Both the position numbers and the translations under genes were made by a program. Below, piece after piece: positions 48,614-64,000 of a stretch of DNA of 64,000 nucleotides; positions within the stretch are counted from its first letter, which is position 1; every line of letters begins with the position of its first letter. The notes under the pieces are model-generated. The model was not told the origin of the DNA and made no database searches. It saw nothing but the letters and a program-made list of their open reading frames with translations. Where the stretch lies: contig NZ_CP065997.1 of the NCBI RefSeq assembly GCF_016127315.1, positions 620,001 through 684,000 on the forward strand. Direction: 5' to 3'. The stretch is from Achromobacter deleyi (GTDB lineage: Bacteria; Pseudomonadota; Gammaproteobacteria; Burkholderiales; Burkholderiaceae_B).

Positions 48614-49074
48614 GAGGCACGCTCCTGCGCTTCGGCAACTGCCGCCGCGTCATCCATCCGCATCGGGTCGGGGTGCAGTTCCTCTACCACGTCGCGCACC
48701 AGGCTGCGCCCGCGCAGCAGGTGACGGCCCAACTGCTCCACGAACTGCTCGAACCGCGCCTTGCCCTGGGCACGTGCCGCGTCTTGGTGCGCCTCGGGAA
48801 CTGGCGTGCTGACCGTGAGGAAGTAGCGGATGAACAGCGCCAGCGTTTCGATTTGGATGTTCTGGTCGCGCTCCAGCCGCTCGGCCTGGCGCGACAGGCG
48901 ATCCAGCCGCTTGGCGATGGCGGCCTCGCGCTGGTCTGCCGCGTCCGGCGACAGCCAGGACGCCAAGGCAGCGGCGACGATGGACGACTTGGACACGCCT
49001 TTCTTGGCGGCCAGTTCGTCCAGGCGCTTGGCGTGCTCCGGCTGGATGAACAGGTTAAGGCGGTAGTGGCTCAT
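48610..49074 (-). CDS. CopG/RHH-type DNA-binding protein
   Basis: A 154-residue protein with a ribbon-helix-helix in the first 45 residues (SHYRLNLFIQPEHAKRLDELAAKKGVSKSSIVAAALASWL) and a helical charged rest. It sits between traG and trbB in all Tn4371-like elements I know of. It may regulate the operon or help recognise the transfer origin. Overlaps both neighbours by four bases. Confidence 0.85.
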   Translation of the reverse strand: MSHYRLNLFIQPEHAKRLDELAAKKGVSKSSIVAAALASWLSPDAADQREAAIAKRLDRLSRQAERLERDQNIQIETLALFIRYFLTVSTPVPEAHQDAARAQGKARFEQFVEQLGRHLLRGRSLVRDVVEELHPDPMRMDDAAAVAEAQERAS

Positions 49075-51071
49075 AGCTCGATTCCGTCGTTGGGGTCGAG
49101 GGAAGCCAGCCGGGCCGTGCGCTGCATGGCCGGATCAAGCTGGCGTGGAAGGGGAAGCGGCAGGTCGTCGTCGTCATCGAACAGCGCGAGGTCGGCTGCG
49201 GACGCGGCCAGATCGGGGTCATAGGCGACGGCTTCGGAGAGTTCGGGCTGACGGCGCGGGCCGCCGTCGTCGGTACTGCCCAGCTCATCAGCAGGAGCGG
49301 GAGCCGGTGCGGCGGGCATGGCGGGAATCGCCAGCCCGCTCCAGTCGTCGGGCCGCGAGGGCGGCGCGTCGGCGTACTGCCCGTCCACCAGCACGGGTGG
49401 CGGCAGCACGCGGGGCTTGAAATTGGCGTCCGCGTAGTAGCGCAGCTTCTTCGCACGGATCGGCGCCACGCTGGACACCATCACCACAGCGTCACCGGGC
49501 GGAAGCTGCATCACTTCGCCCGGCGTCAGCAGCGGACGTGCGGTTTCCTGGCGCGACACCATCAGGTGGCCGAGCCACGGCGCGAGCCGGTGGCCCGCGT
49601 AGTTGCGCTGGGCGCGCAGCTCGGTGGCCGTACCCAGCGTCTCGGAAATCCGTTTGGCGGTGCGCTCGTCGTTCGTGGCGAACGTCACGCGCACATGGCA
49701 GTTGTCGAGGATCGAATGGTTCTGCCCATACGCCTTGTCGATCTGGTTCAGGCTTTGGGCGATGAGGAAGCTGCGGATGCCATAGCCCGCCATGAAGGCC
49801 AATGCCGTCTCGAAGAAGTCCAGGCGCCCAAGCGCCGGGAACTCGTCGAGCATCAGCAGCAGCTTGTGGCGGCGCGCGATGCCGTCGGAGCCATCGAGCG
49901 ATTCCGTCAGCCGCCGCCCGATCTGATTGAGGATCAGGCGGATCAGCGGCTTCGTCCGCGAAATATCCGAAGGCGGCACCACGAGGTACAGCGACACCGG
50001 ATGCTCGGCCGCGATCAGGTCGGCGATGCGCCAATCGCAACGCGACGTGACTTCGGCCACCGTGGGATCACGGTACAGGCCGAGGAACGACATGGCGGTG
50101 CTCAACACGCCGGAGCGTTCGTTGTCCGACTTGTTGAGCACTTCGCGCGCCGCCGAGGCCACGACCGAATGCGGGCCATCGCCGAGATGCGGCGTGGTCA
50201 TCATCCGGTGCAAGGTCAGCTCGAACGGGCAAGCCGGGTCGGAGAGGAAGTTGGCGACGCCGCGCAGCGTCTTGTCTTCGCCCGCGTAGAGCACATGCAG
50301 GATGGCGCCGACCAGCAGCGCGTGCGAGGTCTTTTCCCAATGGTTGCGCCGCTCCAGCGCGCCTTCGGGATCGACCAGAATGTCCGCGATGTTCTGCACG
50401 TCGCGCACTTCATGCGCGCCGCGCCGCACCTCCAGCAGCGGGTTGTAGGCCGCCGACTTCGCATCGGTCGGGTTGAACAGCAGGCAGTGGCTGAACCGAC
50501 TGCGCCAGCCTGCGGTGATCTGCCAGTTCTCGCCCTTGATGTCGTGGATGACGGCCGAGGCCGGCCAGGACAGCAGCGTCGGCACCACCAGGCCAACGCC
50601 TTTACCGCTGCGCGTGGGTGCGAAGGTCAGGACGTGTTCCGGCCCTTCATGCCGCAGGTACTGACGGTCGTGCTGGCCGAGGAACACGCCGGCCGGCTGC
50701 GTGAGTCCCGCCTTGCGAATGTCATCCGCGTTCGCCCAGCGGGCCGAGCCGTAAGTCGTGACCAGGCGCGATTGCCGCGAGCGCCAGATCGACATGCCAA
50801 TCGCCACCAGCACGGCGACGAGACCACTGCCGCCCGCAATAGCGCCGCCGATGTCGAACACGCGGGGCGCGTAGGCATCGAAGAAGAACCACCACTCGAA
50901 CAGTCGCCACGGGTGATAGACCGGCGTGCCTAGAAAATCGAACCACGGCGAGCCAAGGCGTAGTTGATAGCCCAGGGCCGCTGCCGTCCATTGTGTGGCG
51001 CTCCACACACCGGCGATCACGATGCCGAATACCACGGCGATCTGACCGAACAGCACGTTCGTCCCTTGCAT
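49071..51071 (-). CDS. traG: Type IV coupling protein TraG (VirD4-like)
   Basis: The coupling ATPase that brings the relaxosome to the secretion channel. Its 666 residues have two N-terminal membrane segments, Walker A FAPTRSGKG (150-158) and Walker B LLLMLDEFPALGRL. The conserved VRVTFATNDERTAKRISETLG block follows. ATG 51071 opens with MQGTNVLFGQIAVVFG; an upstream start at 51122 would add a non-conserved leader. First gene of the mating-pair operon; the relaxase partner is outside the window. Confidence 0.95.
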   Translation of the reverse strand: MQGTNVLFGQIAVVFGIVIAGVWSATQWTAAALGYQLRLGSPWFDFLGTPVYHPWRLFEWWFFFDAYAPRVFDIGGAIAGGSGLVAVLVAIGMSIWRSRQSRLVTTYGSARWANADDIRKAGLTQPAGVFLGQHDRQYLRHEGPEHVLTFAPTRSGKGVGLVVPTLLSWPASAVIHDIKGENWQITAGWRSRFSHCLLFNPTDAKSAAYNPLLEVRRGAHEVRDVQNIADILVDPEGALERRNHWEKTSHALLVGAILHVLYAGEDKTLRGVANFLSDPACPFELTLHRMMTTPHLGDGPHSVVASAAREVLNKSDNERSGVLSTAMSFLGLYRDPTVAEVTSRCDWRIADLIAAEHPVSLYLVVPPSDISRTKPLIRLILNQIGRRLTESLDGSDGIARRHKLLLMLDEFPALGRLDFFETALAFMAGYGIRSFLIAQSLNQIDKAYGQNHSILDNCHVRVTFATNDERTAKRISETLGTATELRAQRNYAGHRLAPWLGHLMVSRQETARPLLTPGEVMQLPPGDAVVMVSSVAPIRAKKLRYYADANFKPRVLPPPVLVDGQYADAPPSRPDDWSGLAIPAMPAAPAPAPADELGSTDDGGPRRQPELSEAVAYDPDLAASAADLALFDDDDDLPLPLPRQLDPAMQRTARLASLDPNDGIEL

Positions 51072-51216
51072 AACCTCGCCTCCGATCACGGCACACGGAG
51101 GTGCCGCAGCACTGAGGATCAAGGCGTGCGTACAGGCCGGTCAAAGGCCGTTATGGCTGTGATTTAGGCCGAAAAAGCCAGATTTCTTGCAGGGTCGAAA
51201 GCCATAAGAACGCAGC

Positions 51217-51278
51217 GTGCGCGAGCACGTTGCGGCGTGACGAGGTCACGGCGAGAACTTTGTCGCTACGAAGCGACT
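51217..51278. repeat. Three consecutive stem-loops between eexN and traG
   Basis: CGTGC-GCGA-GCACG (51217-51230), CGTGAC-GAG-GTCACG (51237-51251) and GTCGCT-ACGA-AGCGAC (51263-51278) follow within 62 bases. The region from 51072 to 51287 is otherwise gene-free. Reading on the minus strand it separates the eexN-like gene from traG and may be a leader or attenuator of the transfer operon. Confidence 0.5.
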
Positions 51279-51287
51279 ACAACAAGG

Positions 51288-51515: not shown

Positions 51516-51540
51516 GATTCCAGTCCTTTCGTCGGATGGT

Positions 51541-52455
51541 TCAGGCATCGTCGGCAGCGTCGATACCGTCTGCCGAATCAATGAAGGCCACACGCTCGAT
51601 GAACCGAGCCAGCATCTCGGACGGCTCCGCATCGCGGCGTAGCAGATAGGTCGTAAGCATGTATGGCTTGCCTGCCAAGCGGCGGGCCACGACACCCGGC
51701 TCGCGGCTGGAGGCGATATGCGCCTCGCCCGCTAGGCCCAAAGCCAGGCCAGCGGAAACCAGCGTCATCATCACGTCGAAGGTTGCCACGCGCTGCGCAA
51801 TCAGCGGCTCCTGATCGAGCTTGCGCAGAAAACGATCGATCTGCCGCGCGTGGCCTTCGCAGACCGCCGGGTCGCCCAGTGCCAACGGATAGCGCAGCAC
51901 TTCTTTCAGCGGAACCTGTTTGAAGGCGAGCACGGGATGGCGGGCTGGCACCGCTACCATCAGTTCATCTTCCCAAGCAGGTGTGACCAAGATACCATCG
52001 CCTCCATCCTCTGCCATCGAAAAACCTACGTCATACAGATCTTCATGCAAACCCTTGATCTGCAGCCCGAGCGGCACCTCAAACAGACGCATCTCAACTT
52101 CAGGGTCCTCTTCACGGCATCGCGCCAGCAAAGTTGACAATCGTGTGGGTGTTACACCATCAGACAAGGCAATGCGTAACTGGCCTAAAAATCCGTTGGT
52201 GGCCGACTTGACGCCATCACGGGCCTGATCCAATGCGGTAAAAATGCGCGGGACATGCTCCAAAAGCTGTCGCCCGGCACGGGTTAGTTGAGTGCTTCGG
52301 GTAGTACGAATGAATAAACGAGCACCAAGTTCCTCTTCTAATTCTTTGATAGTGCGTGAAAGTGGAGATTGGTCGATATGTAGTCGTTCAGCGGCGCGAG
52401 CGAAATGAAGTTCCTCCGCAACGATGAGAAAGCAGCGAAGATGTCGAAGCTCCAT
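51541..52455 (-). CDS. LysR-family regulator of the element
   Basis: A 304-residue LysR protein: helix-turn-helix MELRHLRCFLIVAEELHFARAAERLHIDQSPLSRTIKELEEEL, then the effector domain (LRIALSDGVTPTRLSTLLARCREEDPEVEMRLFEV). ATG 52455 has GGAG eight bases upstream and is preferred to the GTG at 52464. Tn4371-like elements carry a LysR-type regulator (called TraR) upstream of traG, so it may control transfer. It lies 42 bases after dgkA on the same strand. The base composition shifts within the gene: the 5' part is clearly more A+T-rich than the 3' part. Confidence 0.85.
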   Translation of the reverse strand: MELRHLRCFLIVAEELHFARAAERLHIDQSPLSRTIKELEEELGARLFIRTTRSTQLTRAGRQLLEHVPRIFTALDQARDGVKSATNGFLGQLRIALSDGVTPTRLSTLLARCREEDPEVEMRLFEVPLGLQIKGLHEDLYDVGFSMAEDGGDGILVTPAWEDELMVAVPARHPVLAFKQVPLKEVLRYPLALGDPAVCEGHARQIDRFLRKLDQEPLIAQRVATFDVMMTLVSAGLALGLAGEAHIASSREPGVVARRLAGKPYMLTTYLLRRDAEPSEMLARFIERVAFIDSADGIDAADDA

Positions 52456-52497
52456 TGTGCTCACTCCACTTTAATTCGTCTAATTTCATTTGCGCGG

Positions 52498-52920
52498 CTA
52501 ATTAATCAGCCTTTGCCAGAGTGCTGACAGCCAAACCCCCCCGGTCAGCAAAGTGGCTAACAGCACGGCAGCGCTTCCCATGTCCTTTGCACGCTTTGAT
52601 AGCTCATGCCATTGAGGGCCAATACGATCAATCGCCGATTCCACAGCAGTATTGAGTAGCTCCACAATCATCAAAATAAGGATACTTCCTGAGAGAAGAG
52701 CGACTTCGACCCATCCCTGCCCCAACCAGAAGGCCAATGGGACCAACACAAAGGAAAATACTGACTCAAGTCTAAAGGCCGGCTCATTCCATCCAGCGCG
52801 CAATCCCTGAATTGAGTAATGGGACGCATGCCAAATTCTCAATATTCCTCGGCGAGATTTTTGTTTATTTTCGAATGCGGACATGGAATCAGCTGCGATT
52901 GTGTGTTTTTTATCTTTCAT
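52498..52920 (-). CDS. dgkA: Diacylglycerol kinase DgkA
   Basis: Inner-membrane kinase that turns diacylglycerol into phosphatidic acid. The 140-residue product has an N-terminal extension of about 25 residues, then RGILRIWHASHYSIQGLRAGWNEPAFRLE and the signature IVELLNTAVESAIDRIGPQWHELSKRAKDMGSAAV with the catalytic Glu, over three helices. Located 11 bases after the phosphoethanolamine transferase. Transfer of phosphoethanolamine from phosphatidylethanolamine leaves diacylglycerol, so this gene probably recycles the product. Confidence 0.92.
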   Translation of the reverse strand: MKDKKHTIAADSMSAFENKQKSRRGILRIWHASHYSIQGLRAGWNEPAFRLESVFSFVLVPLAFWLGQGWVEVALLSGSILILMIVELLNTAVESAIDRIGPQWHELSKRAKDMGSAAVLLATLLTGGVWLSALWQRLIN

Positions 52921-52931
52921 GAGAACAACTC

Positions 52932-54605
52932 TTATATATTCTTATCATCACAGCCAAAGAAAAAATCGAAATTCCTATCGTACTCACTTGTTTTAACCTG
53001 CATTAGCCCCAAGACAGACGAAAACAATGCGTCGTGATCCGCATAAGAGCGGGCTCGCTCACTCAAACAGCCAATATTCAGCCCGCGACTTTGCGTAAAC
53101 GTTGAAGAGAACCACATAACCAAAGGAACACGAGTCTGCTCTTGTGGAGCAATCGCATAAGGCATGCCGTGCAGAAAAAGACCCTTCTCGCCCAGGGATT
53201 CGCCGTGATCCGAGACGAATATCATAGCTGTGTCGTAGTCGGAAAGCCCCTGCAATTGTTTGATGGCTCGGCTTAGGAAATGATCTGTGTAGAGAATAGC
53301 GTTGTCGTAGCTATTCACGATCTGTTCGCGGGTGCATTTCCCCATTTCCGGTGTGTCGCATGTTGGGATGAATTTGCGATACGCTGCTGGGTATCGTTGA
53401 AAGTAGCTGGGGCCATGATTTCCAATCTGGTGCAAAAAAATCACACGATCACCGGGAATTTTGCGAGCCTGAGCTGGTAAGTCTTCAAGCAAAATCTCAT
53501 CGAAACACCGACCATCAACGCATAAAGAGGGACTTTGTGCGTTCCCTAGACGTTGATTTTCGAGACCATCGCACACCCCTTTGCAACCTGACTGGTTATC
53601 CCTCCATAAGGTGGTAATACCAGCACGCTCCAGAACATGCAGTAAGGATTGGTGTGAACGAATCTTGTCCTCATCGTAGTTTCGGCGACCAAAGGACGAG
53701 AACATGCAAGGCACAGAAACCTCGGTGTTAGTTCCACAGGAGTGCATGTCGGAGAAATTGATCACACCTATCTGAGCCAATTGAGGCGTTGTTTCGCGTG
53801 CATAGCCGTTCAATCCCCAGTTTTGGGCGCGAGCCGTCTCGCCTACGACAAAGACTAATAAACGTGGCCGACTGCCTTCGGGCCTGACTGTTGCAACGGC
53901 ATCAGCTCCAATGGTTTTCTTTTCGGCGGACTGCGTGATAGAGGAACCTTTTAGTGCCTTCGGTAAGCCCACCAGATAGTTTCCCGGTGTAATCAAGTAT
54001 CGAACTTCGCGATGATTTCTCATCAGTGCGGACATGTCCTGAAATGACAGCATGACACCGACCGAAATCATCAGTGCCGAAAACAGCATTAATCCCATAC
54101 GCCACACGGTTGCTTTCAGCCAAGTACGCCCGACCAATCGGATTCGCCAAAGCAAAATAATCGGCACTACTGCCAGTTGGCTTAGTGGAGCAATCAATGC
54201 AGGCGTCAGTAGCTCGCGACTTTCCTTGAAGTCTGTGGCTAGAACATTGCGCAACATGCTCGAATCGAGGTAGATATGAAAGCTGCGCATGTAGTGTGTT
54301 GCGAGGGCAGAGGCAACAAACAGCACCGCAAGTAAAACCCTGGCATTCCAGCGCCATACAACCAAACTCAACAGCAGACTGTGTATTCCCACCAGAAACA
54401 GCAGTACGGATGTGCCCATGCGTAGACTGGACTGGACGCCTAAGGCGCTACTCCAAAATAGACCATTGCAGGCCAGTGCAAAGAAAATACTGGTCATCAA
54501 GATCAGCCACTCGACGCTGCATTGTGGTCGCCAATGGCTTAGGTTCTTGAGGTTTGCAGTTCTGAATCGCGGCACCAGACCGAGAGCCTGTTTGAAAGTT
54601 CTCAT
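52932..54605 (-). CDS. eptA: Lipid A phosphoethanolamine transferase (EptA/MCR family)
   Basis: A 557-residue inner-membrane enzyme of the YhjW/YjdB/YijP group that adds phosphoethanolamine to lipid A phosphates and lowers polymyxin binding. Five N-terminal helices (residues about 33-190) precede the periplasmic sulfatase-like domain. Visible catalytic residues are Glu256 (VVGETAR), Thr294 (CGTNTEVSVPC, nucleophile by position between Cys290 and Cys300), His397 (NHGPSY), and Asp466-His467 (SDHGES). The cysteine pairs match the MCR/EptA disulfides. ATG 54605 overlaps the PAP2 stop. Eye estimate of G+C is about half, well below neighbours. It is not identical to any MCR type I can recall, so the precise subclass is open. 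Confidence 0.92.
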   Translation of the reverse strand: MRTFKQALGLVPRFRTANLKNLSHWRPQCSVEWLILMTSIFFALACNGLFWSSALGVQSSLRMGTSVLLFLVGIHSLLLSLVVWRWNARVLLAVLFVASALATHYMRSFHIYLDSSMLRNVLATDFKESRELLTPALIAPLSQLAVVPIILLWRIRLVGRTWLKATVWRMGLMLFSALMISVGVMLSFQDMSALMRNHREVRYLITPGNYLVGLPKALKGSSITQSAEKKTIGADAVATVRPEGSRPRLLVFVVGETARAQNWGLNGYARETTPQLAQIGVINFSDMHSCGTNTEVSVPCMFSSFGRRNYDEDKIRSHQSLLHVLERAGITTLWRDNQSGCKGVCDGLENQRLGNAQSPSLCVDGRCFDEILLEDLPAQARKIPGDRVIFLHQIGNHGPSYFQRYPAAYRKFIPTCDTPEMGKCTREQIVNSYDNAILYTDHFLSRAIKQLQGLSDYDTAMIFVSDHGESLGEKGLFLHGMPYAIAPQEQTRVPLVMWFSSTFTQSRGLNIGCLSERARSYADHDALFSSVLGLMQVKTSEYDRNFDFFFGCDDKNI

Positions 54606-55384
54606 GCTTGGAACCCCGATGAATGGACATCGCCTGAGCCACCAACAAACCAGCGTTGCCAGACCATGAAAAGACCCAAGGCAACGACCCAACAAATCAG
54701 GAGTGTCCACAAGTCATGAGAAAGGAAATGGGCTCCGCGCACCTGCTGGGTCCATCCAAAGATGGCACCTATCATCAAACCTGCGGCCAAGGCCATCCAA
54801 CGCCAGGCAGGACGAACCATCAAGGTAAAGAAATAGAGGCTGACCCATGCATATCCGGCACTTGCATGCCCTGCGGGAAAGCACACACCGCGCGGCATAC
54901 CGGGCGGGCGTGTTTCAAACAGGCCCACAAACACTCGCGCTCCGCCATAGCGCACCAAGTTCCAGGGGCAATCCATGTTAGTGAACGATTTCAGCGCCGA
55001 AACCATCAGTGCCGCGATCACGTACGCACAAAAAAGATACAGTAGCGGCCAGCGTAGGTGTGCTGTGCAATTGTTGCTACGTTTTTTTCTCCAAGCCCAG
55101 ATGCACGTTGCTGCAACCACAATTGCCAGCAAGGTGGAAAGATTCTTCCCACCCCGATGCAGCAGGTTGTTGGTTAGCCAGGCATCCCGCAAAGCCCATC
55201 GGCTGCCCTGCAAGCGATAGAGATGATCGGCGACCCAGAAGTCCCCACCGCCATCCATCAATAGACTGCTGATGATCAGCGCCGCACCCGCTGGTAGCGC
55301 TAAATGAGTGATTAAGAATCGAGGTGCGAATAGTGCGTTGGATAGTGGGGCGTTGCCCAGTAGTCGGAATTCATTGGGGGGCAT
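54602..55384 (-). CDS. PAP2-family membrane lipid phosphatase
   Basis: A 260-residue protein with about five helices and the three phosphatase blocks: KSFTNMDCPWNLVRYGG, CFPAGHASAGYAWVSLYFF (catalytic His) and GAHFLSHDLWTLLICW. Such enzymes act on phosphatidic-acid-like or undecaprenyl/lipid A phosphates. PAP2 genes are repeatedly found beside mcr/eptA genes. AAGGAGG is nine bases before ATG 55384; the ATG at 55390 is too close to it. It overlaps the end of the outer-membrane factor gene and, by ATGA, the transferase. Confidence 0.88.
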   Translation of the reverse strand: MPPNEFRLLGNAPLSNALFAPRFLITHLALPAGAALIISSLLMDGGGDFWVADHLYRLQGSRWALRDAWLTNNLLHRGGKNLSTLLAIVVAATCIWAWRKKRSNNCTAHLRWPLLYLFCAYVIAALMVSALKSFTNMDCPWNLVRYGGARVFVGLFETRPPGMPRGVCFPAGHASAGYAWVSLYFFTLMVRPAWRWMALAAGLMIGAIFGWTQQVRGAHFLSHDLWTLLICWVVALGLFMVWQRWFVGGSGDVHSSGFQA

Positions 55385-56669
55385 CGGCATGTGCCTCCTT
55401 CGAATGCCACAGCGCATGCGCATCGATACGCACCAGTGCCGATGCTTGCAGCGCATCGACGCGAACCTGTGCCTCGGCTAGTCGTGTCTGGCGCAGGTTG
55501 CGCAGCGTCAAAAGGTATTCGGCCAAGGGGGCCTCTCCCAATTCCCAAGCCCGCCGCGTGCGGTTGCTGGCCGTGGTCTGCGCGGCCAGCGCCTGCGTGA
55601 ATGATTGCCACTGCGTGCGCTTACTATCCGCTGCTTGCACGGCGACCCACGCACCTTGCTCCACCGCGCGCCGCACGCCGAGCGCCTCGGCCTCTGCGGC
55701 CGCCGCGTTGGCGCTTTCCGTGGCGGCCATTGCACTGCGATAGTCCGTGCCAAATGGCACCGTCAAGACAACGCCAATGACACGTTCCGCCCCGCCGCGT
55801 TCAGACATCATGCGTACCCCGACGGTGGGGTCGGGCGTGCGGTTGGCGCGAGCGCGCTCGGCCACCTTGGCAAGGCGAGCCGCCTCTCCATCGGCAATGC
55901 CGATTTCGACGCTTTGTCGCACAATTCGCGCCAGCCACTCCTGTACCCCGCCCGGCAAGGGATCGGGATCTGGCAGGGTGGATGGCCGTGCGGGAATCTC
56001 AATGCCGGGGAACTCAATCACCAACGTCTGTCGTGCTTCCCGTTCTGCATCGCGCGCGGCGCTAACCTGGGCCGCAAGCAGTGCGCGTTCGGCTTGCAAA
56101 ACGTCGCTGTCCCGCCGCGCGGCATCGCCCAGGGCCACGCGCCGGGCCATTGCTTCCTGCTCACGAATAAGCAACTTTTCCTGCGCTTGCATCTCGTCAG
56201 CCACGATGAAACTGCGCAGCCATCCGGCCCAGACTTCCAGCAGTCGCCTTGCCATCTGGTGCTCGGCATCTTCAAGGCGCATACCGGCCACGCCGCGGGT
56301 GCGGCTGCCGATCTCCCGATCCAGACGCGCCTTGTTTGGCAAGCGAACAGCACGGCTGAGCTGGATTTCCCATTCGTTGTAGCGATGCGCTTCGTTGGTC
56401 ACGTTGCGACGTTGTAGGCCGCTACTGAGTTCAAACTCGTGGCTACCGGCTTCAAGGGCGCTTTGCGTGGCAGCAGCCGCGTCCAAGCGAGCGGCTGCGG
56501 CATTCACGACCGGCTGGGTTTTCATCGCTGCTTCGACTTGCACCTGCGCAGGTAGCCAGGAGAGATCATCGGCGCGCGCTTGCGCGGGATGAAATGTCAA
56601 AACCGCGATAGCCACCATGACGGCACCAGCCGGTAGTACCAGGCTGCATCCTTTGTTTTTACTCGTCAT
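55371..56669 (-). CDS. Outer-membrane efflux factor (TolC/CzcC-like)
   Basis: A 432-residue outer-membrane channel of the RND efflux complex. It has a signal peptide (cleavage after ARA), then two OEP repeats rich in Ala, Glu, Gln and Arg helices (AAAATQSALEAGSHEFELSSGLQRRN; LNPDPTVGVR-like TPDPTVGVRMM). ATG 56669 overlaps the DUF3240 stop by four bases. The order MFP-RND-DUF3240-OMF is unusual since czcC is often first. It is followed without a gap by the PAP2 gene. Confidence 0.85.
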   Translation of the reverse strand: MTSKNKGCSLVLPAGAVMVAIAVLTFHPAQARADDLSWLPAQVQVEAAMKTQPVVNAAAARLDAAAATQSALEAGSHEFELSSGLQRRNVTNEAHRYNEWEIQLSRAVRLPNKARLDREIGSRTRGVAGMRLEDAEHQMARRLLEVWAGWLRSFIVADEMQAQEKLLIREQEAMARRVALGDAARRDSDVLQAERALLAAQVSAARDAEREARQTLVIEFPGIEIPARPSTLPDPDPLPGGVQEWLARIVRQSVEIGIADGEAARLAKVAERARANRTPDPTVGVRMMSERGGAERVIGVVLTVPFGTDYRSAMAATESANAAAAEAEALGVRRAVEQGAWVAVQAADSKRTQWQSFTQALAAQTTASNRTRRAWELGEAPLAEYLLTLRNLRQTRLAEAQVRVDALQASALVRIDAHALWHSKEAHADAPQ

Positions 56670-56986
56670 ACCAGTCTTCCACTTGCCAACACCGACTCCA
56701 CCCACCAGCGGACATCGCTAGACGCGATGCGCTGGCGCAGATGCGCCAGGACCTGTTCCAGTTGTTCGTATTCGATCAACACCCAGATGACGCGCCGATC
56801 CACACGGCCGCGAACCTTCTCGCGAATGGACGCGCGCGCGAAGTCGCCGGTATGCCCTTCGGCGTGCAACAGGGTGAACCCTGGCAGCACCGGGTCGGCC
56901 ATCAGGGCATCGGTGACGGCGTCTTCGAGCGTGGGTGGAAACACCAGATTCAGGCGCACCAGTTGCGCTTCTTTCAATCCGTTCAT
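56666..56986 (-). CDS. DUF3240 (PII-like) small protein
   Basis: A 106-residue protein similar in form to the DUF3240 family, which resembles PII-type trimers: MNGLKEAQLVRLNLVFPPTLEDAVTDALMAD, then GFTLLHAEGHTGDFARASIREKVRGRVDRRVIWVLIEYEQLEQVLAHL. Genes of this family occur next to CzcA/CusA-type pumps and may sense metals or adjust the pump. Its start and stop overlap the two neighbours by four bases, so production is coupled with the pump. Confidence 0.78.
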   Translation of the reverse strand: MNGLKEAQLVRLNLVFPPTLEDAVTDALMADPVLPGFTLLHAEGHTGDFARASIREKVRGRVDRRVIWVLIEYEQLEQVLAHLRQRIASSDVRWWVESVLASGRLV

Positions 56987-59900
56987 GCGTGGACTCCTTG
57001 TTGTGAGGAGATGGCCTGGCCGAATCGCCGGTACAGCACCGGCAGCAGGACCAGGGTCAGCGCCGTGGAACTGACCAGTCCGCCAATCACCACGATGGCG
57101 AGTGGGCGCTGGATCTCAGAGCCAGGGCCACTGGCCAGCAGCAGGGGCACCAGGCCAAAGGCGGTGATGGAAGCCGTCATCAGCACGGGGCGCAGCCGTC
57201 GCAGCGAACCTTCGCGCACCACCTGTTCCATGGGCAGGCCTAGCGCGTGCAGGTGGTTGAAGTGCGTCACCAGCACCAATCCGTTGAGCACGGCGATGCC
57301 CAGCAGCGCGATGAAGCCGACCGAAGCAGGCACCGACAGGTACTGCCCCGACAGCCACAGCGCTGCCACGCCGCCGACCATGGCAAACGGCACGTTGCCG
57401 AGGATGAGCGCGGCCTGCCGCACCGAGCCGAAGGTCATGAACAGCACGAAGAAAATCAGCCCCAGGGCCACCGGCACCACCATGCCTAGGCGGGCCGCTG
57501 CACGTTGCTGGTTCTCAAACTGCCCGCCCCATTCGACGCGGTAGCCGGGCGGCAGCGGCACGTCGCGCGCCACGGCTTCGCGCGCTTCATCTACGAAGCC
57601 GACCAGATCGCGCCCGCTCACGCTGGACTGGATCAGCGCGAAGCGCGAACCGTTCTCGCGCCGCACCAGCACGGGGCCATCGGTGGTGGCGATGCGCGCC
57701 AGCGAGGCTAGGGGGATCTCGCCCTGATCGCCACGGGCGAGCTGCAAGTCCTTGAACCGCTCGGCCGATCCGCGCAGCCGGGCATCCCCGCGCACCACGA
57801 TGGGCGTGCGCCTGTCCGGCTCGATCACCAGCCCGGCCGGCACGCCTTCGAGCTGCGCACGCAGCTCGTCCTGAACCTGCGTCACGGCCAGTCCGGCGCG
57901 ACCGGCCGCCTGCGCATCCACCTTCACCTGCAGGTATTCCACGCTGTCGCTGGCCTGGGTGAGCACGTCGCGCGCACCGGGCACTTTCTCGATGCGAGCG
58001 GCCATGCGCTGCGCCAGATCGCCCAGCGTTTGCAGATCAGGGCCGAACAGCTTGACGGCCACGTCGCCCCGGCTGCCGGTGAGCATTTCCGAGATGCGCA
58101 TCTCGATGGGCTGGGTAAAGCCGAATTCCAGGCCGGGGAAGGCATCCATCACCTTGCGTATCTCGGCACTCAACGCGTCCTTGTCGGCTGCATGCCAATC
58201 CTTGCGCGGTGCGAGCTGCATGAACAGGTCGGTTTCGTTCAGGCCCATCGGGTCGAGCCCCAGCTCGTCCGAGCCCACCCGCCCGATGCTGTGCCGCACC
58301 TCGGGCACCGCCGCACCGATGGCCTTCTGCACCGCCAGGTCAATCTCCAGCGAGCGCTGCAACCCAATGGACGGCGGCTTTTGCAGTTGCAGCAGGATAT
58401 CGCCCTCATCCATCGTCGGCATGAACGCCTTGCCCGTGCCGAGGTAGGCCACCACACCCAATGCCAGGGCCGCGATAGCGACCGCCGATGCGCGTAGCGG
58501 GTGGTGAAGCGCAGCCTCCAGCAGCGGTTGGTACAGGCGCGTGGCCCAGCGCATCACCCACGGCTCGGTGTGCGCGTGTTCCTTGAGGAGCAGCGAGGCC
58601 AGCACCGGCACCAGCGTGAGCGACAGCAGCAGCGAGACGCCCAGGGCGAACACGATGGTCAGCGCCACCGGCACAAACAGTTTGCCTTCCAACCCTTGCA
58701 GCGTGAGCAGGGGCATGAAGGTCAGACAGATGATGAGGATGCCCGAGGCCACAGGCATGGCGACCTCGCGCGCCGCGGCGAATATGCGGTGCAGGCGCGG
58801 CTGGTGCGCACTGGGCGCGTGCGGGTCGAGCCGACTGACGGCGTTTTCCACCACCACCACGGCAGCATCCACCAGCATGCCGATGGCGATTGCGAGCCCA
58901 CCCAGGCTCATCAGGTTGGCGCTCATGCCGACAAGGCGCATCAGCAAGAAGGTACCCAGCGCCGCCAAAGGCACCATCACCGCCACCACCAGCGCGGCGC
59001 GAAGCTCGCCGAGGAACAGAAGCAGCAGGATGACGACCAGTACCGTCGCTTCCAGCAAGGCGCTTTCCACCGTGCCCACGGCGCGCTCGATCAGCGTGCT
59101 GCGGTCATAGAACGGCACCACCTTGACGCCGGGCGGCAGGCTGGGAGCCACCTCGTCCAGCCGGGCGCGAATGGCCTTCACGAGCGCCGAAGCATCGGCC
59201 CCGCGCAGCGCCACCACGATGCCTTCCACCGCTTCGCCCGCGCCGTCCCGGGTGACTGCGCCATAGCGAGTCACGCCTTCGATGCGCACCTGGGCCACGT
59301 CGCCCAGGCGAACTGGGGCCGTGCCATTGGCCCCCGCGCGCAGGATCAGACGGGATAAATCGTCCAAAGTGTGGATCGCGCCTTCGGCGCGCACGATCAG
59401 CGTGTCCTCGCCCGCATCCAGGCGGCCCGCGCCGTCGTTGCGGTTGTTGCGGCCGATCGCAGTGATGACGTCCGAGAAGCCGAGGCCCGCAGCGGAAAGC
59501 CGCGCGCGATCAGGCACCACGGCAAAGCTCTTGGCTTCGCCGCCCAGCACGTTGACATCGGCAACGCCGGGCAGCGTGCGCAGGGCCGGGCGCAGCGTCC
59601 AGTCCAGCAGGGCGCGCCGCTCGCTCAGCGTGAGGCTGCCGCCTTCGATGGTGAACATGAACACGTCTGACAGCGGCGTCGAAATCGGTGCCAGCCCGCC
59701 GCTGACGCCGTCGGGCAGACTGCCCGAAACACCGGCATAGCGTTCAGCCACCTGCTGACGCGCCCAGTAGATGTCGCTGCCTTCGGCGAAGTCCAGCGTG
59801 ATGTCGGCGATGGCGTACTTGGCCGTGGAGCGCAGCATCACGCCCCGCGGCACGCCGAGCAACTCCATCTCCAGCGGCGTGATCACGCGCGACTCCACCT

Positions 59901-60078
59901 CCTCGGGCGTCATGCCAGGGGCCTTGATAATCAGCTTGACCTGCGTTGGGGAAATGTCCGGATAGGCGTCGATCGGCAGTTGCAGGAAGGCCGCCAGGCC
60001 CGCACCCGCCAAAGCCAGCACGCCAAGCAGTACCAGCGCACGTTGGCGCAGGGAAAATTCAATCAGACGGGACAACAT
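56983..60078 (-). CDS. Heavy-metal RND efflux pump (CzcA/CusA family)
   Basis: A 1031-residue inner-membrane proton-driven pump with 12 predicted helices and two large periplasmic loops. The metal-RND start is seen in LIEFSLRQRALVLLGVLALAGAGLAAFLQLP and DISPTQVKLIIKAPGMTPEEVE. The helix-4 motif is AIGMLVDAAVVVVEN: the first Asp of the divalent-metal DFG...DGA pattern is Ala, closer to the AIG...DAA...EN pattern of Cu/Ag pumps. The metal is thus open. ATG 60078 is used; the upstream in-frame extension to 60288 lies in the previous gene. Thirteen bases separate it from the membrane fusion protein. Confidence 0.9.
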   Translation of the reverse strand: MLSRLIEFSLRQRALVLLGVLALAGAGLAAFLQLPIDAYPDISPTQVKLIIKAPGMTPEEVESRVITPLEMELLGVPRGVMLRSTAKYAIADITLDFAEGSDIYWARQQVAERYAGVSGSLPDGVSGGLAPISTPLSDVFMFTIEGGSLTLSERRALLDWTLRPALRTLPGVADVNVLGGEAKSFAVVPDRARLSAAGLGFSDVITAIGRNNRNDGAGRLDAGEDTLIVRAEGAIHTLDDLSRLILRAGANGTAPVRLGDVAQVRIEGVTRYGAVTRDGAGEAVEGIVVALRGADASALVKAIRARLDEVAPSLPPGVKVVPFYDRSTLIERAVGTVESALLEATVLVVILLLLFLGELRAALVVAVMVPLAALGTFLLMRLVGMSANLMSLGGLAIAIGMLVDAAVVVVENAVSRLDPHAPSAHQPRLHRIFAAAREVAMPVASGILIICLTFMPLLTLQGLEGKLFVPVALTIVFALGVSLLLSLTLVPVLASLLLKEHAHTEPWVMRWATRLYQPLLEAALHHPLRASAVAIAALALGVVAYLGTGKAFMPTMDEGDILLQLQKPPSIGLQRSLEIDLAVQKAIGAAVPEVRHSIGRVGSDELGLDPMGLNETDLFMQLAPRKDWHAADKDALSAEIRKVMDAFPGLEFGFTQPIEMRISEMLTGSRGDVAVKLFGPDLQTLGDLAQRMAARIEKVPGARDVLTQASDSVEYLQVKVDAQAAGRAGLAVTQVQDELRAQLEGVPAGLVIEPDRRTPIVVRGDARLRGSAERFKDLQLARGDQGEIPLASLARIATTDGPVLVRRENGSRFALIQSSVSGRDLVGFVDEAREAVARDVPLPPGYRVEWGGQFENQQRAAARLGMVVPVALGLIFFVLFMTFGSVRQAALILGNVPFAMVGGVAALWLSGQYLSVPASVGFIALLGIAVLNGLVLVTHFNHLHALGLPMEQVVREGSLRRLRPVLMTASITAFGLVPLLLASGPGSEIQRPLAIVVIGGLVSSTALTLVLLPVLYRRFGQAISSQQGVHA

Positions 60079-60091
60079 GCGTGGTCGCCCC

Positions 60092-61315
60092 TCATTGCAA
60101 TGGAATGATGGATTTGAGCAGTGCCGTACCGCGCACGACGACCTGCATGCCTGCCGCAAGCGGCGCAGTGTCTGGCGAGACGGCACGCACGGCGCTTGAC
60201 GCCTCTGATTCGTCTTGCCCCAGCAGTTGCACCGGAACAGCGCGGACGTGTAGGTCGCCTTGCTTGTCTTGCGATGACGGCTCAGCAACGTAGAGCACGT
60301 GGGCGCTGCCCGCTGGCAGCAGTGCGGACGATGGCACGCTCAAGGTGCCCTGCGGTGCTGGCAGCAACAGCGCGACACTGATCTGCTGCCCGGCCGCATA
60401 GCGGTCTGCCCCTGCCTGATCTGCATCGACGCGGGCACGTACCCGCAGGCTCTGACTACTGAGGTCAGTGTCGCCACCAACAGCCGTCACGCGAGCGATC
60501 GTGCCATCGGGAAGACGCACTTCCAAGCCTGGGTGGAGATCCGAGCGCCAGCGCAGCGGAACCGCGACGCTGACATCCAGCGGACCAGGCTGAGCCACTA
60601 TAAAGGCGATGTCGAGCGGCGCAACCGCCTGCCCGAGGCTCAGGTGACGACGCATCACTCGCCCGGACAAAGGCGCCAGCAATTCATACTCGCCGGCCTG
60701 CCCGCCGCTAACGGGTCGAAGCCGTGCGAGGGCGCCATTGGCCTCTTGCAACGTACTTTGCGCAGCCGCCGCGCGCGCCTGGGTTTGCTCGTTGCGCGTG
60801 GCTGGGATGATGCCCTCGGCCAATAGCGTGGCATCGCGCCGGGCCTGCGCCGCGGCCACCGCCGCTTCGGTGCGGGCACGCGCCAGATCAGCCTGCGAAG
60901 CCAGAACGTCCTTGCTCTGGATGCGCGCCAGCGCCTGTCCTTGGCGCACTGCGGTGCCTTCATCGACCAGAACGCGCGTCACCACACCGCCATAGGGCGC
61001 CACGACCTGCGCGCTGGCCGAGAGTGGTGCCACCGTCTGCGCGGGTAAGCCATCCAGCGGTATCACTGCGGCATCCTTGACGAGTGCGGTTTCCACACCC
61101 TGCGCGTGAAGCTGAGCGGCGTTGAGGTGAACGCCGCCAGCGTTCGGTTGGGCGACAGCCTCGCTCGCGTCTCTATCGGCCACGGTTGTCTGCTGCGTTG
61201 TCCAAGCCCACCAGCCGTACCCTACGGCAGCTAGAACTGCCACACTGACGGCGGACAGGGCCAAGGTCTTGGTTCGGCTGGCGGTGCCCGCCGCTTTCAA
61301 GGTCGGGAAGCTCAT
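60092..61315 (-). CDS. Membrane fusion protein of the RND pump (CzcB/CusB-like)
   Basis: A 407-residue periplasmic adaptor. It has an N-terminal membrane anchor (TLALSAVSVAVLAAVGYGWWAW), a lipoyl/barrel-sandwich half (VVAPYGGVVTRVLVDEGTAVRQGQALARI), a helical hairpin (ARARTEAAVAAAQARRDATLL), the second lipoyl half (ELLAPLSGRVMRRHLSLGQAV) and a beta-barrel. No His- or Met-rich metal-binding leader is seen. ATG 61315 is chosen (MSFPTLKAAG). It is the first gene of the seven-gene unit and is divergent from the cytochrome b561 gene. Confidence 0.88.
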   Translation of the reverse strand: MSFPTLKAAGTASRTKTLALSAVSVAVLAAVGYGWWAWTTQQTTVADRDASEAVAQPNAGGVHLNAAQLHAQGVETALVKDAAVIPLDGLPAQTVAPLSASAQVVAPYGGVVTRVLVDEGTAVRQGQALARIQSKDVLASQADLARARTEAAVAAAQARRDATLLAEGIIPATRNEQTQARAAAAQSTLQEANGALARLRPVSGGQAGEYELLAPLSGRVMRRHLSLGQAVAPLDIAFIVAQPGPLDVSVAVPLRWRSDLHPGLEVRLPDGTIARVTAVGGDTDLSSQSLRVRARVDADQAGADRYAAGQQISVALLLPAPQGTLSVPSSALLPAGSAHVLYVAEPSSQDKQGDLHVRAVPVQLLGQDESEASSAVRAVSPDTAPLAAGMQVVVRGTALLKSIIPLQ

Positions 61316-61463
61316 GCTTGTGCCGCCCCAAACGACGTAGAGCAGAGTAGAAAGCACACAGCGCGGATTGAAAATCCGTCGCATATGAAGCGGTGCGCGA
61401 GGTTAATGAGGCGAAACATGCGGTCGATCTCTTGTAAAAGATCGGCTCATGTTCTTCGGTGAA

Positions 61464-61487
61464 GCTTTGAGAAAGCTTTGGAGAAAG
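61464..61487 (-). promoter_or_regulatory. Direct repeats in the divergent promoter region
   Basis: On the minus strand CTTTCTC occurs at 61487-61481 and 61475-61469 (12-bp step), with a CTTC start 11 bases further at 61464. Short direct repeats with one-turn spacing are typical of response-regulator sites. They lie about 150 bases before both the pump operon and the b561 gene, in the 310-base gene-free interval 61316-61625. Confidence 0.45.
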
Positions 61488-61625
61488 CGAAATTTGCTCA
61501 GTACGATGTATTTCGGCGAAACGCCTGCTTTGAGCAGCAAGCAATCGATAAACTGACTTTTCAGTAACTTGCTCTGATATGCTAGCGGTGCGCCTTTGCT
61601 ACCTCAAACATCGGAGCTATACACC

Positions 61626-62177
61626 ATGAATGTCAGGAATTCCGAATACCGTTTCAGTCCTTTGGTCATAGGACTGCATTGGCTGACTGTGCTTCTCATC
61701 ATCGCGGTCTATGCGAGCATGGAGCTGCGCGGACTGGCACCCAAGGGCGCCTTGAGAGACGCCATGAAGTCCTTGCACTACCTGCTGGGCCTCAGCGTTC
61801 TGGTGATCGTCGTGATCCGTATCGGGGTGCGCATCCAGGCGGGCGTGAAGCCCGCGATCCAACCACCCATGCCACGCTGGCAGGCCACGCTCGCCGATGT
61901 CATGCACTATGCGCTCTACAGCTTCATGCTCGCCATGCCGCTGCTCGGATGGCTCACCTTGAGTGCGGCGGGCAAGCCGATTGTTCTGTTTGGCTTGCCC
62001 ATTCCCTCTCTGATCGGCACCGACGTTGCTTTGTCGCGCCAACTCAAGGATGTCCATGAGGCGCTGGCGACATTGGGCTATGTCTTGATCGGATCGCATG
62101 CGATGGCGGCGCTGTTGCACCACTACGTCATGCGTGACAACACACTGGTTCGCATGCTTCCCGGTCGTCGCCCCTGA
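61626..62177 (+). CDS. Cytochrome b561-family protein
   Basis: A 183-residue four-helix membrane cytochrome b. Heme-ligand candidate histidines are in GLHWLTVLLI, SLHYLLG, MHYALYSF and HAMAALLHHY at helix edges. Members pass electrons from quinol or scavenge superoxide in the inner membrane. ATG 61626 has GGAG nine bases upstream. It is divergent from the pump operon and next to the VIT gene; b561 genes are often beside polymyxin/metal resistance regulators, though the physiological link is not established. Confidence 0.9.
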   Translation: MNVRNSEYRFSPLVIGLHWLTVLLIIAVYASMELRGLAPKGALRDAMKSLHYLLGLSVLVIVVIRIGVRIQAGVKPAIQPPMPRWQATLADVMHYALYSFMLAMPLLGWLTLSAAGKPIVLFGLPIPSLIGTDVALSRQLKDVHEALATLGYVLIGSHAMAALLHHYVMRDNTLVRMLPGRRP

Positions 62178-62218
62178 CCTACTGGCCTCAGGCTGCTTTA
62201 TATGGATTCGAATCTCCA

Positions 62219-62926
62219 ATGACCAAATTTCACCACCGCGCCCACCCTGAAAGTCACCGCACTGAACATATCGGATGGCTGCGCGCCGCTGTTCTGGGTG
62301 CCAATGACGGCATCATTTCCACGGCCAGCCTGGTTGCAGGCGTGGCTGCTGCCCATGCAAGCCATGCCAGCATCATGACCACGGCCATCGCGGGGTTGGT
62401 AGCCGGTGCCATGTCCATGGCTGCAGGCGAGTTCGTGTCGGTCTATTCACAAGCTGATACGGAGAAGGCGGATTTGGCGCGGGAACGTGATGAACTGGAA
62501 AACAGTCCGGAAGCAGAGCATCGGGAACTAACGGCCATCTATGTCCGGCGTGGCCTGGATCATCGACTCGCGGATCAGGTCGCCACGCAATTGATGGCGC
62601 ATGATGCGCTGGGCGCGCACGCGCGCGATGAATTGGGCATTTCTGAAACCTTGAGCGCTCGCCCGCTGCAAGCCGCCATGGCGTCCGCTGGGAGCTTCGC
62701 GGTGGGTGCGGCCATGCCGCTGGCCGTGGTTCTGTTGGCGCCGGAGCAGAGCCTGCTCTATTGGATCGTCGCGACGGCGATTGTCTTCCTGGCCCTTCTC
62801 GGCGCTGCGGCCGCTGCCGTGGGTGGTACGCCGCTCTTCAAAAGTGCGCTGCGCGTCGCGTTCTGGGGCACATTTGCCATGGCGGTGACAGCGGGCGTGG
62901 GAGCCATGTTCGGCACTGCGGTGTAG
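62219..62926 (+). CDS. VIT1/CCC1-family metal transporter
   Basis: A 235-residue membrane protein with five predicted helices, similar to the vacuolar iron/manganese transporter family. Motifs: LGANDGIISTASLVAGVAAA, SMAAGEFVSVYSQADTEKADL (metal-binding region with Glu and Met), and the membrane-exterior helix rich in charged residues. Probably moves Fe2+ or Mn2+ out of the cytoplasm. It is 41 bases after the b561 stop, likely co-transcribed. Confidence 0.9.
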   Translation: MTKFHHRAHPESHRTEHIGWLRAAVLGANDGIISTASLVAGVAAAHASHASIMTTAIAGLVAGAMSMAAGEFVSVYSQADTEKADLARERDELENSPEAEHRELTAIYVRRGLDHRLADQVATQLMAHDALGAHARDELGISETLSARPLQAAMASAGSFAVGAAMPLAVVLLAPEQSLLYWIVATAIVFLALLGAAAAAVGGTPLFKSALRVAFWGTFAMAVTAGVGAMFGTAV

Positions 62927-62939
62927 ATCTGCGTCAATC

Positions 62940-64000
62940 TCAGAGCAGCGGTGGCCAAGGGCCAAGCCGCGCGGACAGCCGACCGTTGTCCAGTGAGAAC
63001 GCCAGCGGCAGGTCTATGGCATGCGCGAGCGCCAGGGCCAGTGCAAGTCCCAGCCCGGCGTGGTGCGCCGTGCCACCTTCGGAATCCTTGCGCCAGAAGC
63101 GAAGTCCGAATTGATCCAGATCGGATGCCTGCAAATTGGGAGCTGTGTTGACGATGGTCAACATCCAGCCGGAAGCCGCGCGCTCCAGCCTACATTGAAT
63201 GTCGTCGCCTTCGGGCGCGTATTCGATGGCATTGCGCAAGAGGTTGGAGACGATGCGTTCGATCACGCCCTGATCGCTTTGCACCCATGCCGATTCAGGC
63301 AAAGTCACACGGATAGGTGACTTGGGTGCCATTTGCTGGACGTTGAATCCCGCCAGCAACTCTTGCAGCAAAGCTGTTAGATCCAGAGGATCAAGCGCAA
63401 GTGTGTGTTGGCCGGATTCAAGCCGCGCCAACAACAGCAGAGTGTCCACACTGCGCTGCATGCGTGAACTGGCCTGGATCGTTGCATTCAGGGCGCGCTG
63501 GATTTGGGTCGGGTCGGCATCGATCAAAGCGCTTTCTGCGCTGATGCGGATTTCTGCCAAGGGCGTGCGCAACTCGTGGGCCACGTCGCGGGAGAAGCGG
63601 CGCTCGCGGGCAATGGCCGCATACAGGTGATGCAAGCCCTGATTGAAGGCTTCGGCAAACGGCCGCAGTTCGCGTGGAAAGTCCGCTCCGGTCCGCGCAA
63701 TCGGCCGATCCGAACGCAGGTCGGCCAGTTGCACGCCGACGCGCTCCAGCATGACCACGATGCGCCGAACCATGAGCAGCGCCAGGCCTGTGGCCAGGAG
63801 CGTCGCCAGCACGATACCGCCCAGGAGCGTGAAGTGGATGCGCCGTTCGGTTTGATCCCAATCCCGACGTTCTGTTGCCACAACCAGCAATCGAGATTCC
63901 TCACCTCTTACCGGCACGCGCGTCGCCAGCGCGCGGCCCGCGTGGCCGTCCGGGAGTATCACGTCGTAGTAGCGTGGGGTGCCTTGCTCCACCGGTCCAA
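62940..64000 (-). CDS. Sensor histidine kinase (partial, N-terminus off window)
   Basis: The last 350 residues or so of a membrane histidine kinase are visible. They include the end of a periplasmic sensor region, a membrane helix (FTLLGGIVLATLLATGLALLM), a HAMP-like linker, the H box FSRDVAHELRTPLAEIR, the N box LLRNAIEYAPEG, and a G box GLGLALALALAHA. It resembles QseC/PmrB/CzcS-type kinases. The N-terminus and the partner response regulator, expected immediately upstream on the same strand, lie outside the window. It converges on the VIT gene with 13 bases between stops and probably controls the cargo genes. Confidence 0.88.
   Translation of the reverse strand, partial: GPVEQGTPRYYDVILPDGHAGRALATRVPVRGEESRLLVVATERRDWDQTERRIHFTLLGGIVLATLLATGLALLMVRRIVVMLERVGVQLADLRSDRPIARTGADFPRELRPFAEAFNQGLHHLYAAIARERRFSRDVAHELRTPLAEIRISAESALIDADPTQIQRALNATIQASSRMQRSVDTLLLLARLESGQHTLALDPLDLTALLQELLAGFNVQQMAPKSPIRVTLPESAWVQSDQGVIERIVSNLLRNAIEYAPEGDDIQCRLERAASGWMLTIVNTAPNLQASDLDQFGLRFWRKDSEGGTAHHAGLGLALALALAHAIDLPLAFSLDNGRLSARLGPWPPLL

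What the first reader, a model, noticed from the sequence alone, without database searches (positions are those of the whole stretch)
52498..61315. Seven-gene cargo operon joining metal efflux to lipid A phosphoethanolamine modification
Seen: MFP, RND pump, DUF3240, outer-membrane factor, PAP2, EptA-type transferase and DgkA follow each other on one strand with gaps of at most 13 bases and mostly ATGA-type overlaps. Known: EptA transfers phosphoethanolamine to lipid A, leaving diacylglycerol; DgkA recycles this; PAP2 genes accompany mcr/eptA genes. Inference: one transcript delivers cation efflux together with reduced binding of cationic peptides, with the kinase at 62940 as likely controller. 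Metal exposure could then co-select for polymyxin tolerance on a conjugative element.
Basis: partly seen in the sequence, partly recalled or inferred. Interest (0 to 1): 0.85.

Follow-up and report, generated by a model that had tools for sequence, protein, structure and literature searches.

The report
Metal-pump and lipid-A operon on ICE
A conjugative element in an Achromobacter carries one tight gene row for a metal pump and for lipid A remodelling, and the row appears to run on into the element's own transfer activator, so that metal stress might switch on resistance and spread together.

Summary
In detail: seven minus-strand genes (mfp, rnd, DUF3240, omf, pap2, eptA, dgkA; 61315-52498), gaps -20 to +13 nt, all seven family names supported. 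The order recurs in 7 of 8 loci of one scan, on the same Tn4371-type ICE. None of 19 other eptA loci has the pump beside it, and none of 12 other pump loci has eptA. It is a composite: GC-rich pump genes joined to a lower-GC lipid-A block.

Corrections. (1) The row goes on: traR starts 42 nt after dgkA, no terminator-like site between, same spacer in 8 of 8 copies. In another Tn4371 ICE traR is co-transcribed with cargo and activates excision and transfer (PMC11448139); its palindrome precedes a xis-like gene here. (2) The pump lacks the CusA methionine triad; its pocket is acidic, pointing to a divalent metal. (3) Lipid-A genes are broken in 3 of 7 relatives, pump genes in none. Zinc-induced eptA gives P. 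aeruginosa no colistin resistance (PMC9952513), so polymyxin co-selection is unproven.

The parts
61454..61487 (-). tandem repeat CTTTCTCCAAAG-CTTTCTCAAAG-CTTCACCGAAG, candidate binding site of the response regulator (operator)
   Evidence: identical in 7 of 8 copies, 2 of 34 bases differ in the Burkholderiaceae MAG, while flanks vary more; both half sites occur only here in the window plus L026. Function inferred.
61312..61419 (-). 35-aa leader ORF, ATGA overlap with mfp
   Evidence: open in 8 of 8 copies; expression not tested
60092..61315 (-). mfp, periplasmic adaptor of metal RND pump (an upstream ATG at 61384 is also open)
   Evidence: TIGR01730 108.1 bits, cut-off 94.9; HlyD_D23
56983..60078 (-). 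rnd, heavy-metal RND permease
   Evidence: TIGR00914 984 bits, cut-off 701; best match by sequence among solved structures is ZneA 4k0e
56666..56986 (-). DUF3240 protein
   Evidence: PF11582 134.8 bits
55371..56669 (-). omf, outer-membrane factor
   Evidence: PF02321 34 bits, cut-off 22; no NCBIfam match
54602..55390 (-). pap2, LpxE-like PAP2 phosphatase
   Evidence: PF01569 44.4 bits, cut-off 27.2; 50-55% to PAP2 directly upstream of eptA in three genomes of the Stenotrophomonas copy's family
52932..54605 (-). eptA, lipid A phosphoethanolamine transferase
   Evidence: NF028537 562.5 bits, cut-off 500; active-site residues kept against 5fgn
52498..52920 (-). dgkA, diacylglycerol kinase
   Evidence: PF01219 106.6 bits; no NCBIfam match
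51541..52455 (-). traR, LysR-type regulator of the ICE, 42 nt after dgkA (GTG start at 52464 also possible)
   Evidence: LysR domains; same dgkA-traR spacer in 8 of 8 copies; no terminator-like site between dgkA and traR
49071..51122 (-). traG, IncP-type coupling protein of the ICE
   Evidence: NF010450 1220 bits, cut-off 674
61596..62177 (+). cytochrome b561-type protein, divergent
   Evidence: PF01292; kept in 8 of 8 copies
62219..62926 (+). VIT family transporter
   Evidence: PF01988; kept in 8 of 8 copies
62940..63998 (-). sensor histidine kinase (gene continues to 64352 outside the window; response regulator and ferric-reductase-like gene precede it)
   Evidence: HisKA/HATPase_c; full gene and regulator read from L001 and L026

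Best explanation
This is the cargo region of a Tn4371-family ICE in an Achromobacter. A metal-responsive two-component system (regulator and kinase beside the operon) most likely acts at the conserved repeat at 61487-61454 and starts one transcript. It makes (a) a tripartite RND pump that exports a divalent metal such as Zn, Co, Cd or Ni from the periplasm, (b) a lipid-A set: an LpxE-like PAP2 phosphatase clears the 1-phosphate or recycles lipid products, EptA adds phosphoethanolamine, and DgkA recycles the diacylglycerol, so that the surface binds fewer cations, and (c) by read-through, TraR, which activates xis, excision and transfer. Shown by sequence: gene content, order, overlaps, conservation, intact EptA active site, ICE scaffold, TraR palindrome. 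Inferred: co-transcription, the metal, the regulator's target, the lipid A product, metal-triggered transfer.
For: Gaps of -20 to +13 nt in the seven genes; order kept in 8 of 8 copies over Burkholderiales and a Stenotrophomonas; catalytic Glu, Thr, Asp and His of EptA kept (residue list in PMC8306577 passages); acidic pump pocket, no CusA Met triad; no terminator-like site between dgkA and traR and no minus-strand sigma-70-like site in 50900-63000; TraR palindrome CGTTTTG-N9-CAAAACG upstream of an HTH_17 xis-like gene, exact in 6 of 8 copies; traR co-transcription and function shown in ICEKKS102Tn4677 (PMC11448139: abstract, passages and two sections); dN/dS below 1 in all pairs with a value, rnd 0.04-0.06, eptA 0.19-0.23 in six of seven pairs.
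Against: No RNA or phenotype data. The consensus scan found no sigma-70-like promoter on the minus strand anywhere in 50900-63000, so it cannot say where transcription starts, and its counts do not exceed shuffles. Regulator and kinase miss the curated cut-offs of the metal models. Lipid-A genes are broken in 3 of 7 relatives. The candidate operator differs in one copy. The TraR palindrome has 3 of 14 arm bases changed in the Stenotrophomonas copy. No CAAAACG half site lies just upstream of traG here. KKS102 traR also has its own promoter pR (PMC11448139).
Confidence: 0.6

Rival explanations
1. The lipid-A block is a separate, fairly recent passenger: pap2-eptA-dgkA was inserted between omf and traR, is transcribed with the pump only by accident of place, and is decaying. 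It gives little benefit under metal stress.
For: GC steps from 0.675 (rnd) to 0.480 (dgkA) and GC3 from 0.84 to 0.49; pap2, eptA or dgkA broken in 3 of 7 relatives, pump genes in none; dN/dS higher in dgkA (0.36-0.41 in the four pairs with 18 or more changes) and pap2 (0.24-0.68); none of 12 related pump loci has the block.
Against: eptA dN/dS of about 0.2 is still purifying; block present in 8 of 8 ICE copies; overlaps omf-pap2 and pap2-eptA suggest translational coupling.
Confidence: 0.25
2. The lipid-A genes serve metal defence itself, not peptide defence: neutralising lipid A phosphates lowers cation binding at the cell surface, as proposed for PmrAB and ColRS regulons; polymyxin tolerance is a side effect or absent.
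For: ColRS regulon with LPS-modifying genes contributes to Zn and Fe tolerance (PMC4074579 passages); Zn induces eptA without colistin resistance in P. aeruginosa (PMC9952513 passages); Xanthomonas arnT-lpxE-eptA lies beside a ColRS orthologue (PMC8306577 passages).
Against: The kinase here has no ExxE motif, so it does not look like a ColS-type sensor; the effects of the LPS genes in P. putida were small.
Confidence: 0.45
3. traR is transcribed mainly from its own promoter inside dgkA, so cargo induction does not control transfer.
For: KKS102 traR has a promoter pR besides the operon promoter (PMC11448139).
Against: No minus-strand promoter-like site found, though the scan is insensitive; in KKS102 release or replacement of the operon promoter raised traR 13- and 30-fold across a longer 294-bp gap.
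Confidence: 0.3

Closest known systems
Tn4371-family ICEs (ICEKKS102Tn4677; ICEs with 'czc' cargo in Delftia, Comamonas, Diaphorobacter, PMC2789088)
   Same: relaxase, repA/parA, traR-traG-trb scaffold, cargo between relaxase and traR pointing to traR; czc-type pump cargo already reported in 2009
   Different: cargo operon also carries pap2-eptA-dgkA; the 2009 paper's main text holds none of six lipid-A terms searched. Whether those ICEs hold the same operon was not tested.
Xanthomonadaceae lpxE-eptA pair
   Same: PAP2 directly upstream of eptA; ATGA overlap in Xanthomonas (PMC8306577 passages) as here; EptA 63-66%, PAP2 50-55% in three genomes
   Different: in Xanthomonas with arnT and the ColRS-like raxRH (PMC8306577); no dgkA found in the 1.5-kb flanks of the three; GC 0.64-0.68 in those loci against 0.48-0.55 here
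mcr genes with pap2 or dgkA (mcr-1, -2, -3, -7, -8)
   Same: same accessory enzymes beside the transferase (PMC10285318 passages)
   Different: no metal pump named in the passages seen; EptA here is below every MCR family cut-off listed
mcr-9 cassette with rcnRA, pcoE, pcoS and qseBC (recalled, not looked up)
   Same: metal genes near a phosphoethanolamine transferase gene on a mobile element
   Different: neighbours rather than one RND-eptA operon (recalled)
CzcCBA / ZneCAB / CusCFBA pumps
   Same: heavy-metal RND tripartite pump
   Different: TM4 stretch reads like CusA but the pocket is acidic as in ZneA; DUF3240 in operon, as in 7 of 12 related loci

Membership tests
Tn4371-family ICE | TraI-type relaxase, repA, parA, xis-like gene | tested here: met
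   DUF3363 relaxase; RlxS 657.6 bits but below its cut-off of 850; RPA, ParA/MinD-type and HTH_17 hits
Tn4371-family ICE | traR between cargo and traG, cargo pointing to traR | tested here: met
Tn4371-family ICE | IncP-like TraG and Trb mating-pair genes | tested here: met
   TraG 1220/674, TrbB 399/305, TrbE 1485/1020 bits; TrbI by Pfam but below NCBIfam cut-off; the ORF 42249-43613 matched no family
Tn4371-family ICE | integrase and att ends | not tested
   ends not mapped; the 8-bp end repeats of PMC2789088 were only listed, without a conclusion
HME-RND pump | CusA/CzcA family permease | tested here: met
   TIGR00914 984/701
Cu/Ag (CusA-type) pump | three-methionine site (M573, M623, M672; names recalled) | tested here: not met
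   aligned residues Q, E, E, read by hand from the alignment
Zn (ZneA-type) pump | acidic pocket E136, D172, E610, D654, D658 (names recalled) | tested here: inconclusive
   aligned D, D, D, M, E, read by hand
EptA phosphoethanolamine--lipid A transferase | curated domain model and active site | tested here: met
   NF028537 562.5/500; aligned Glu, Thr, Asp, His. The narrower EptA equivalog NF008619 is below its cut-off (495/660).
MCR families | curated exception cut-off | tested here: not met
   best MCR-5 534/1250
LpxE / PAP2 lipid A phosphatase | curated equivalog cut-off | tested here: not met
   NF028538 76.9/275; PF01569 and synteny only
czc/sil/cop two-component system | curated subfamily cut-offs | tested here: not met
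   TIGR01386 160.1/292.6, TIGR01387 197.5/279.2; each the best-scoring family
ColRS | ExxE metal motif in sensor | tested here: not met
   no ExxE in the kinase
Single operon | one transcript | not testable with these tools
   anatomy only

The most novel reading that the evidence does not exclude
A metal-sensing operon that joins three responses in one transcript: metal export, lipid A remodelling, and, through read-through into traR, excision and transfer of the element. Metal exposure would then not only select for but directly trigger the spread of a phosphoethanolamine transferase gene between genera.
Probability: 0.4. Interest if true: 0.78.

Novelty: new variant of a known kind. Interest (0 to 1): 0.55.

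Why it matters
Each half is known: Tn4371 ICEs with metal pumps, and eptA with pap2 and dgkA. Their fusion in one operon, found in six named genera counting the host (Achromobacter, Pigmentiphaga, Delftia, Xenophilus, Variovorax, Stenotrophomonas), is a natural test of two questions: whether lipid A modification is part of metal defence, and whether a cargo inducer drives ICE spread generally, as proposed from one biphenyl ICE. If metal induces traR here, metal pollution would act on spread as well as on selection.

Tried and rejected
Plasmid origin: the plasmids collection gave only partial pump matches in 4 records, 70.6-73.3%. Recent acquisition from Stenotrophomonas: EptA of named Stenotrophomonas is at most 68% alike in the 120 listed hits and three family loci are GC-rich; the nearest hits outside the element's own cluster, 79% and 68%, are unnamed metagenome proteins, so the donor is unknown. 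ColRS-type control: no ExxE. Known RNA families: none at gathering score in 51000-64000. Cu/Ag pump: Met triad absent. Solved relatives of the PAP2 protein: one listed match at E 0.18, chance. Literature: no paper joining this pump to eptA in an operon was seen in the listings (held open-access library only; of the papers listed in all searches I opened six, as passages or sections). Searches on ZneA and DUF3240 listed nothing that I used. The second TraR site of PMC11448139 was found only in L142.
Full report
Observation. Pfam names all seven above cut-off. NCBIfam adds RND adaptor, CusA/CzcA-family permease (984 bits, cut-off 701) and phosphoethanolamine--lipid A transferase (562.5 bits, cut-off 500); dgkA, omf and DUF3240 have no NCBIfam match and PAP2 only sub-threshold ones. 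A 35-aa leader ORF overlaps the mfp start by ATGA and is open in 8 of 8 copies.

Place. The window is G000:C1:620001-684000 of a 7.0-Mb single-contig genome. In this genome only one EptA-type gene was found at E <= 0.001. Around the operon lie an IncP-type TraG, TrbB, TrbE and TrbI, the LysR gene traR, and beyond the window a DUF3363 relaxase, ParA-type and RepA genes and an HTH_17 xis-like gene: the scaffold of a Tn4371-family ICE. Integrase and ends were not mapped.

Recurrence. One genome-contig scan with EptA gave 8 loci (it may leave out the window's own record). Seven (Pigmentiphaga, a Burkholderiaceae MAG, a Delftia acidovorans MAG, D. tsuruhatensis, Xenophilus, Variovorax, Stenotrophomonas) keep the whole order kinase-VIT-cytb561-mfp-rnd-DUF3240-omf-pap2-eptA-dgkA-traR-traG-trb at 91.6-97.2% DNA identity over about 21.8 kb. 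The eighth (Xanthomonas, 58%) has PAP2 and EptA without the pump. Among 399 order genomes, 62 have an EptA at E <= 1e-110; only the own genome and G191 exceed 90%, and G191 has the same contig number, contig size and coordinates as the D. tsuruhatensis record. Among 198 genomes of the Stenotrophomonas copy's family, 4 reach E <= 1e-240 and only that copy is above 70%.

A joint of two modules. I fetched surroundings for 20 of the 63 EptA places, most of the best-scoring ones. One is the D. tsuruhatensis copy; of the other 19, none has the pump beside eptA, 13 have PAP2 and 3 have DgkA in the stretch. Two of these 19 are only 5.3 and 4 kb long, so absence there is weak, and one (L088) has a 65-residue RND match at its far edge. 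Conversely, 12 pump loci, chosen from the 82 of 101 genomes with a DNA match, were read as stretches of 19-20 kb: 0 of 12 has eptA, pap2 or dgkA at E <= 1e-4, and 7 of 12 have DUF3240. GC falls from 0.675 in rnd through 0.553 in pap2 to 0.480 in dgkA, and GC3 from 0.84 to 0.49. In three genomes of the Stenotrophomonas copy's family PAP2 (50-55%) sits directly before eptA (63-66%), and in Xanthomonas the lpxE-eptA pair has an ATGA overlap (PMC8306577, passages), as here. Those loci are GC-rich, so they are kin and not the likely donor.

Selection. In 7 of the 28 possible pairs of copies rnd has dN/dS 0.04-0.06, omf 0.14-0.15, DUF3240 0.16-0.34, mfp 0.23-0.31, eptA 0.19-0.23 in six pairs and 0.46 in a pair with 5 changes, dgkA 0.36-0.41 in the four pairs with 18 or more changes and 0 to 0.92 in the rest, pap2 0.24-0.68; pairs without synonymous changes have no value. 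The four pump genes are intact in 7 of 7 relatives. pap2 has a stop at codon 9 in the D. acidovorans MAG (a later start may still serve), dgkA a stop at codon 106 in D. tsuruhatensis, and eptA a stop at codon 200 plus a frameshift near the start of dgkA in Stenotrophomonas: 3 of 7 relatives. These are drafts or MAGs, so some may be assembly errors. The lipid-A arm is maintained on the whole but looks the more dispensable part.

Chemistry. EptA keeps the residues listed for N. meningitidis EptA (Glu-240, Thr-280, Asp-452, His-453 in PMC8306577) in the alignment. The permease aligned to CusA has Q, E, E in place of the three methionines, and against ZneA D, D, D, M, E at E136, D172, E610, D654, D658 (read by hand; residue roles recalled). 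I read this as a divalent-cation pump, although the TM4 stretch resembles CusA.

Control. Beyond the window lie the full kinase, an OmpR-type regulator and a ferric-reductase-like gene. Kinase and regulator score best on TIGR01386 and TIGR01387 but below the cut-offs; the kinase lacks the ExxE motif of ColS. A tandem repeat at 61487-61454 is identical in 7 of 8 copies and has 2 of 34 bases changed in the Burkholderiaceae MAG; it is my candidate operator. The promoter scan found no minus-strand sigma-70-like site in 50900-63000; promoter-like sites were 2 against 3.6 in shuffles and terminator-like sites 10 against 10.2, so that scan carries little weight.

Transfer. traR starts 42 nt after dgkA (33 nt if the GTG is used), with no terminator-like site between. 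The spacer is the same in 8 of 8 copies, although traR itself differs by 11-14% in DNA in three of them. In ICEKKS102Tn4677 traR is co-transcribed with cargo across 294 bp and raises xis, traG, excision and transfer; 30 of 32 family ICEs have this layout (PMC11448139: abstract, passages and sections 25 and 28). The palindrome that paper proposes for TraR, CGTTTTG-N9-CAAAACG, occurs exactly once in the 95 kb examined (about 1e-4 expected from base composition), at L026:9559, upstream of the xis-like gene. It is exact, with a varying spacer, in 6 of 8 copies; one contig ends before it; in Stenotrophomonas it has 3 mismatches. Against: no CAAAACG half site lies just upstream of traG here, and KKS102 traR has a second promoter.

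Judgement. Pump-bearing Tn4371 ICEs were described in 2009 (PMC2789088, passages), and eptA-type genes with pap2 and dgkA are known (PMC10285318, passages). The fusion in one operon upstream of traR is, so far as the listed searches show, not described. The polymyxin claim is weak: zinc-induced phosphoethanolamine addition gave no colistin resistance in P. aeruginosa (PMC9952513, passages).

Noticed in passing
61312-61419 (-): 35-aa ORF overlapping the mfp start by ATGA, open in 8 of 8 copies; possible leader or small exported protein (by eye).
   Followed up: partly
61596-62926 (+) and L026:2037-3380: Divergent cytochrome b561 and VIT transporter genes travel with the operon, and a ferric-reductase-like gene precedes the regulator; a redox or iron role of the module is unexplained.
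   Followed up: no
G000:C1:480823-481731 and 4613751-4614635: Two further traR homologues (87% and 72%) in the same genome suggest two more Tn4371-type elements.
   Followed up: no
L035 (Stenotrophomonas sp. PS02298), L032, L031: Lipid-A genes of the operon are broken in these copies while the pump genes are intact.
   Followed up: partly
dgkA-traR border in L030, L031, L035: The spacer is unchanged and dgkA is 95-99% alike, but traR right after it is only 86-89% alike in DNA: possibly a recombination joint at the cargo-traR border.
   Followed up: partly
L026:11591-19015: A SIR2-like 595-aa ORF and a set that looks like arsenic and chromate genes, further cargo of the element; names by eye only.
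   Followed up: no
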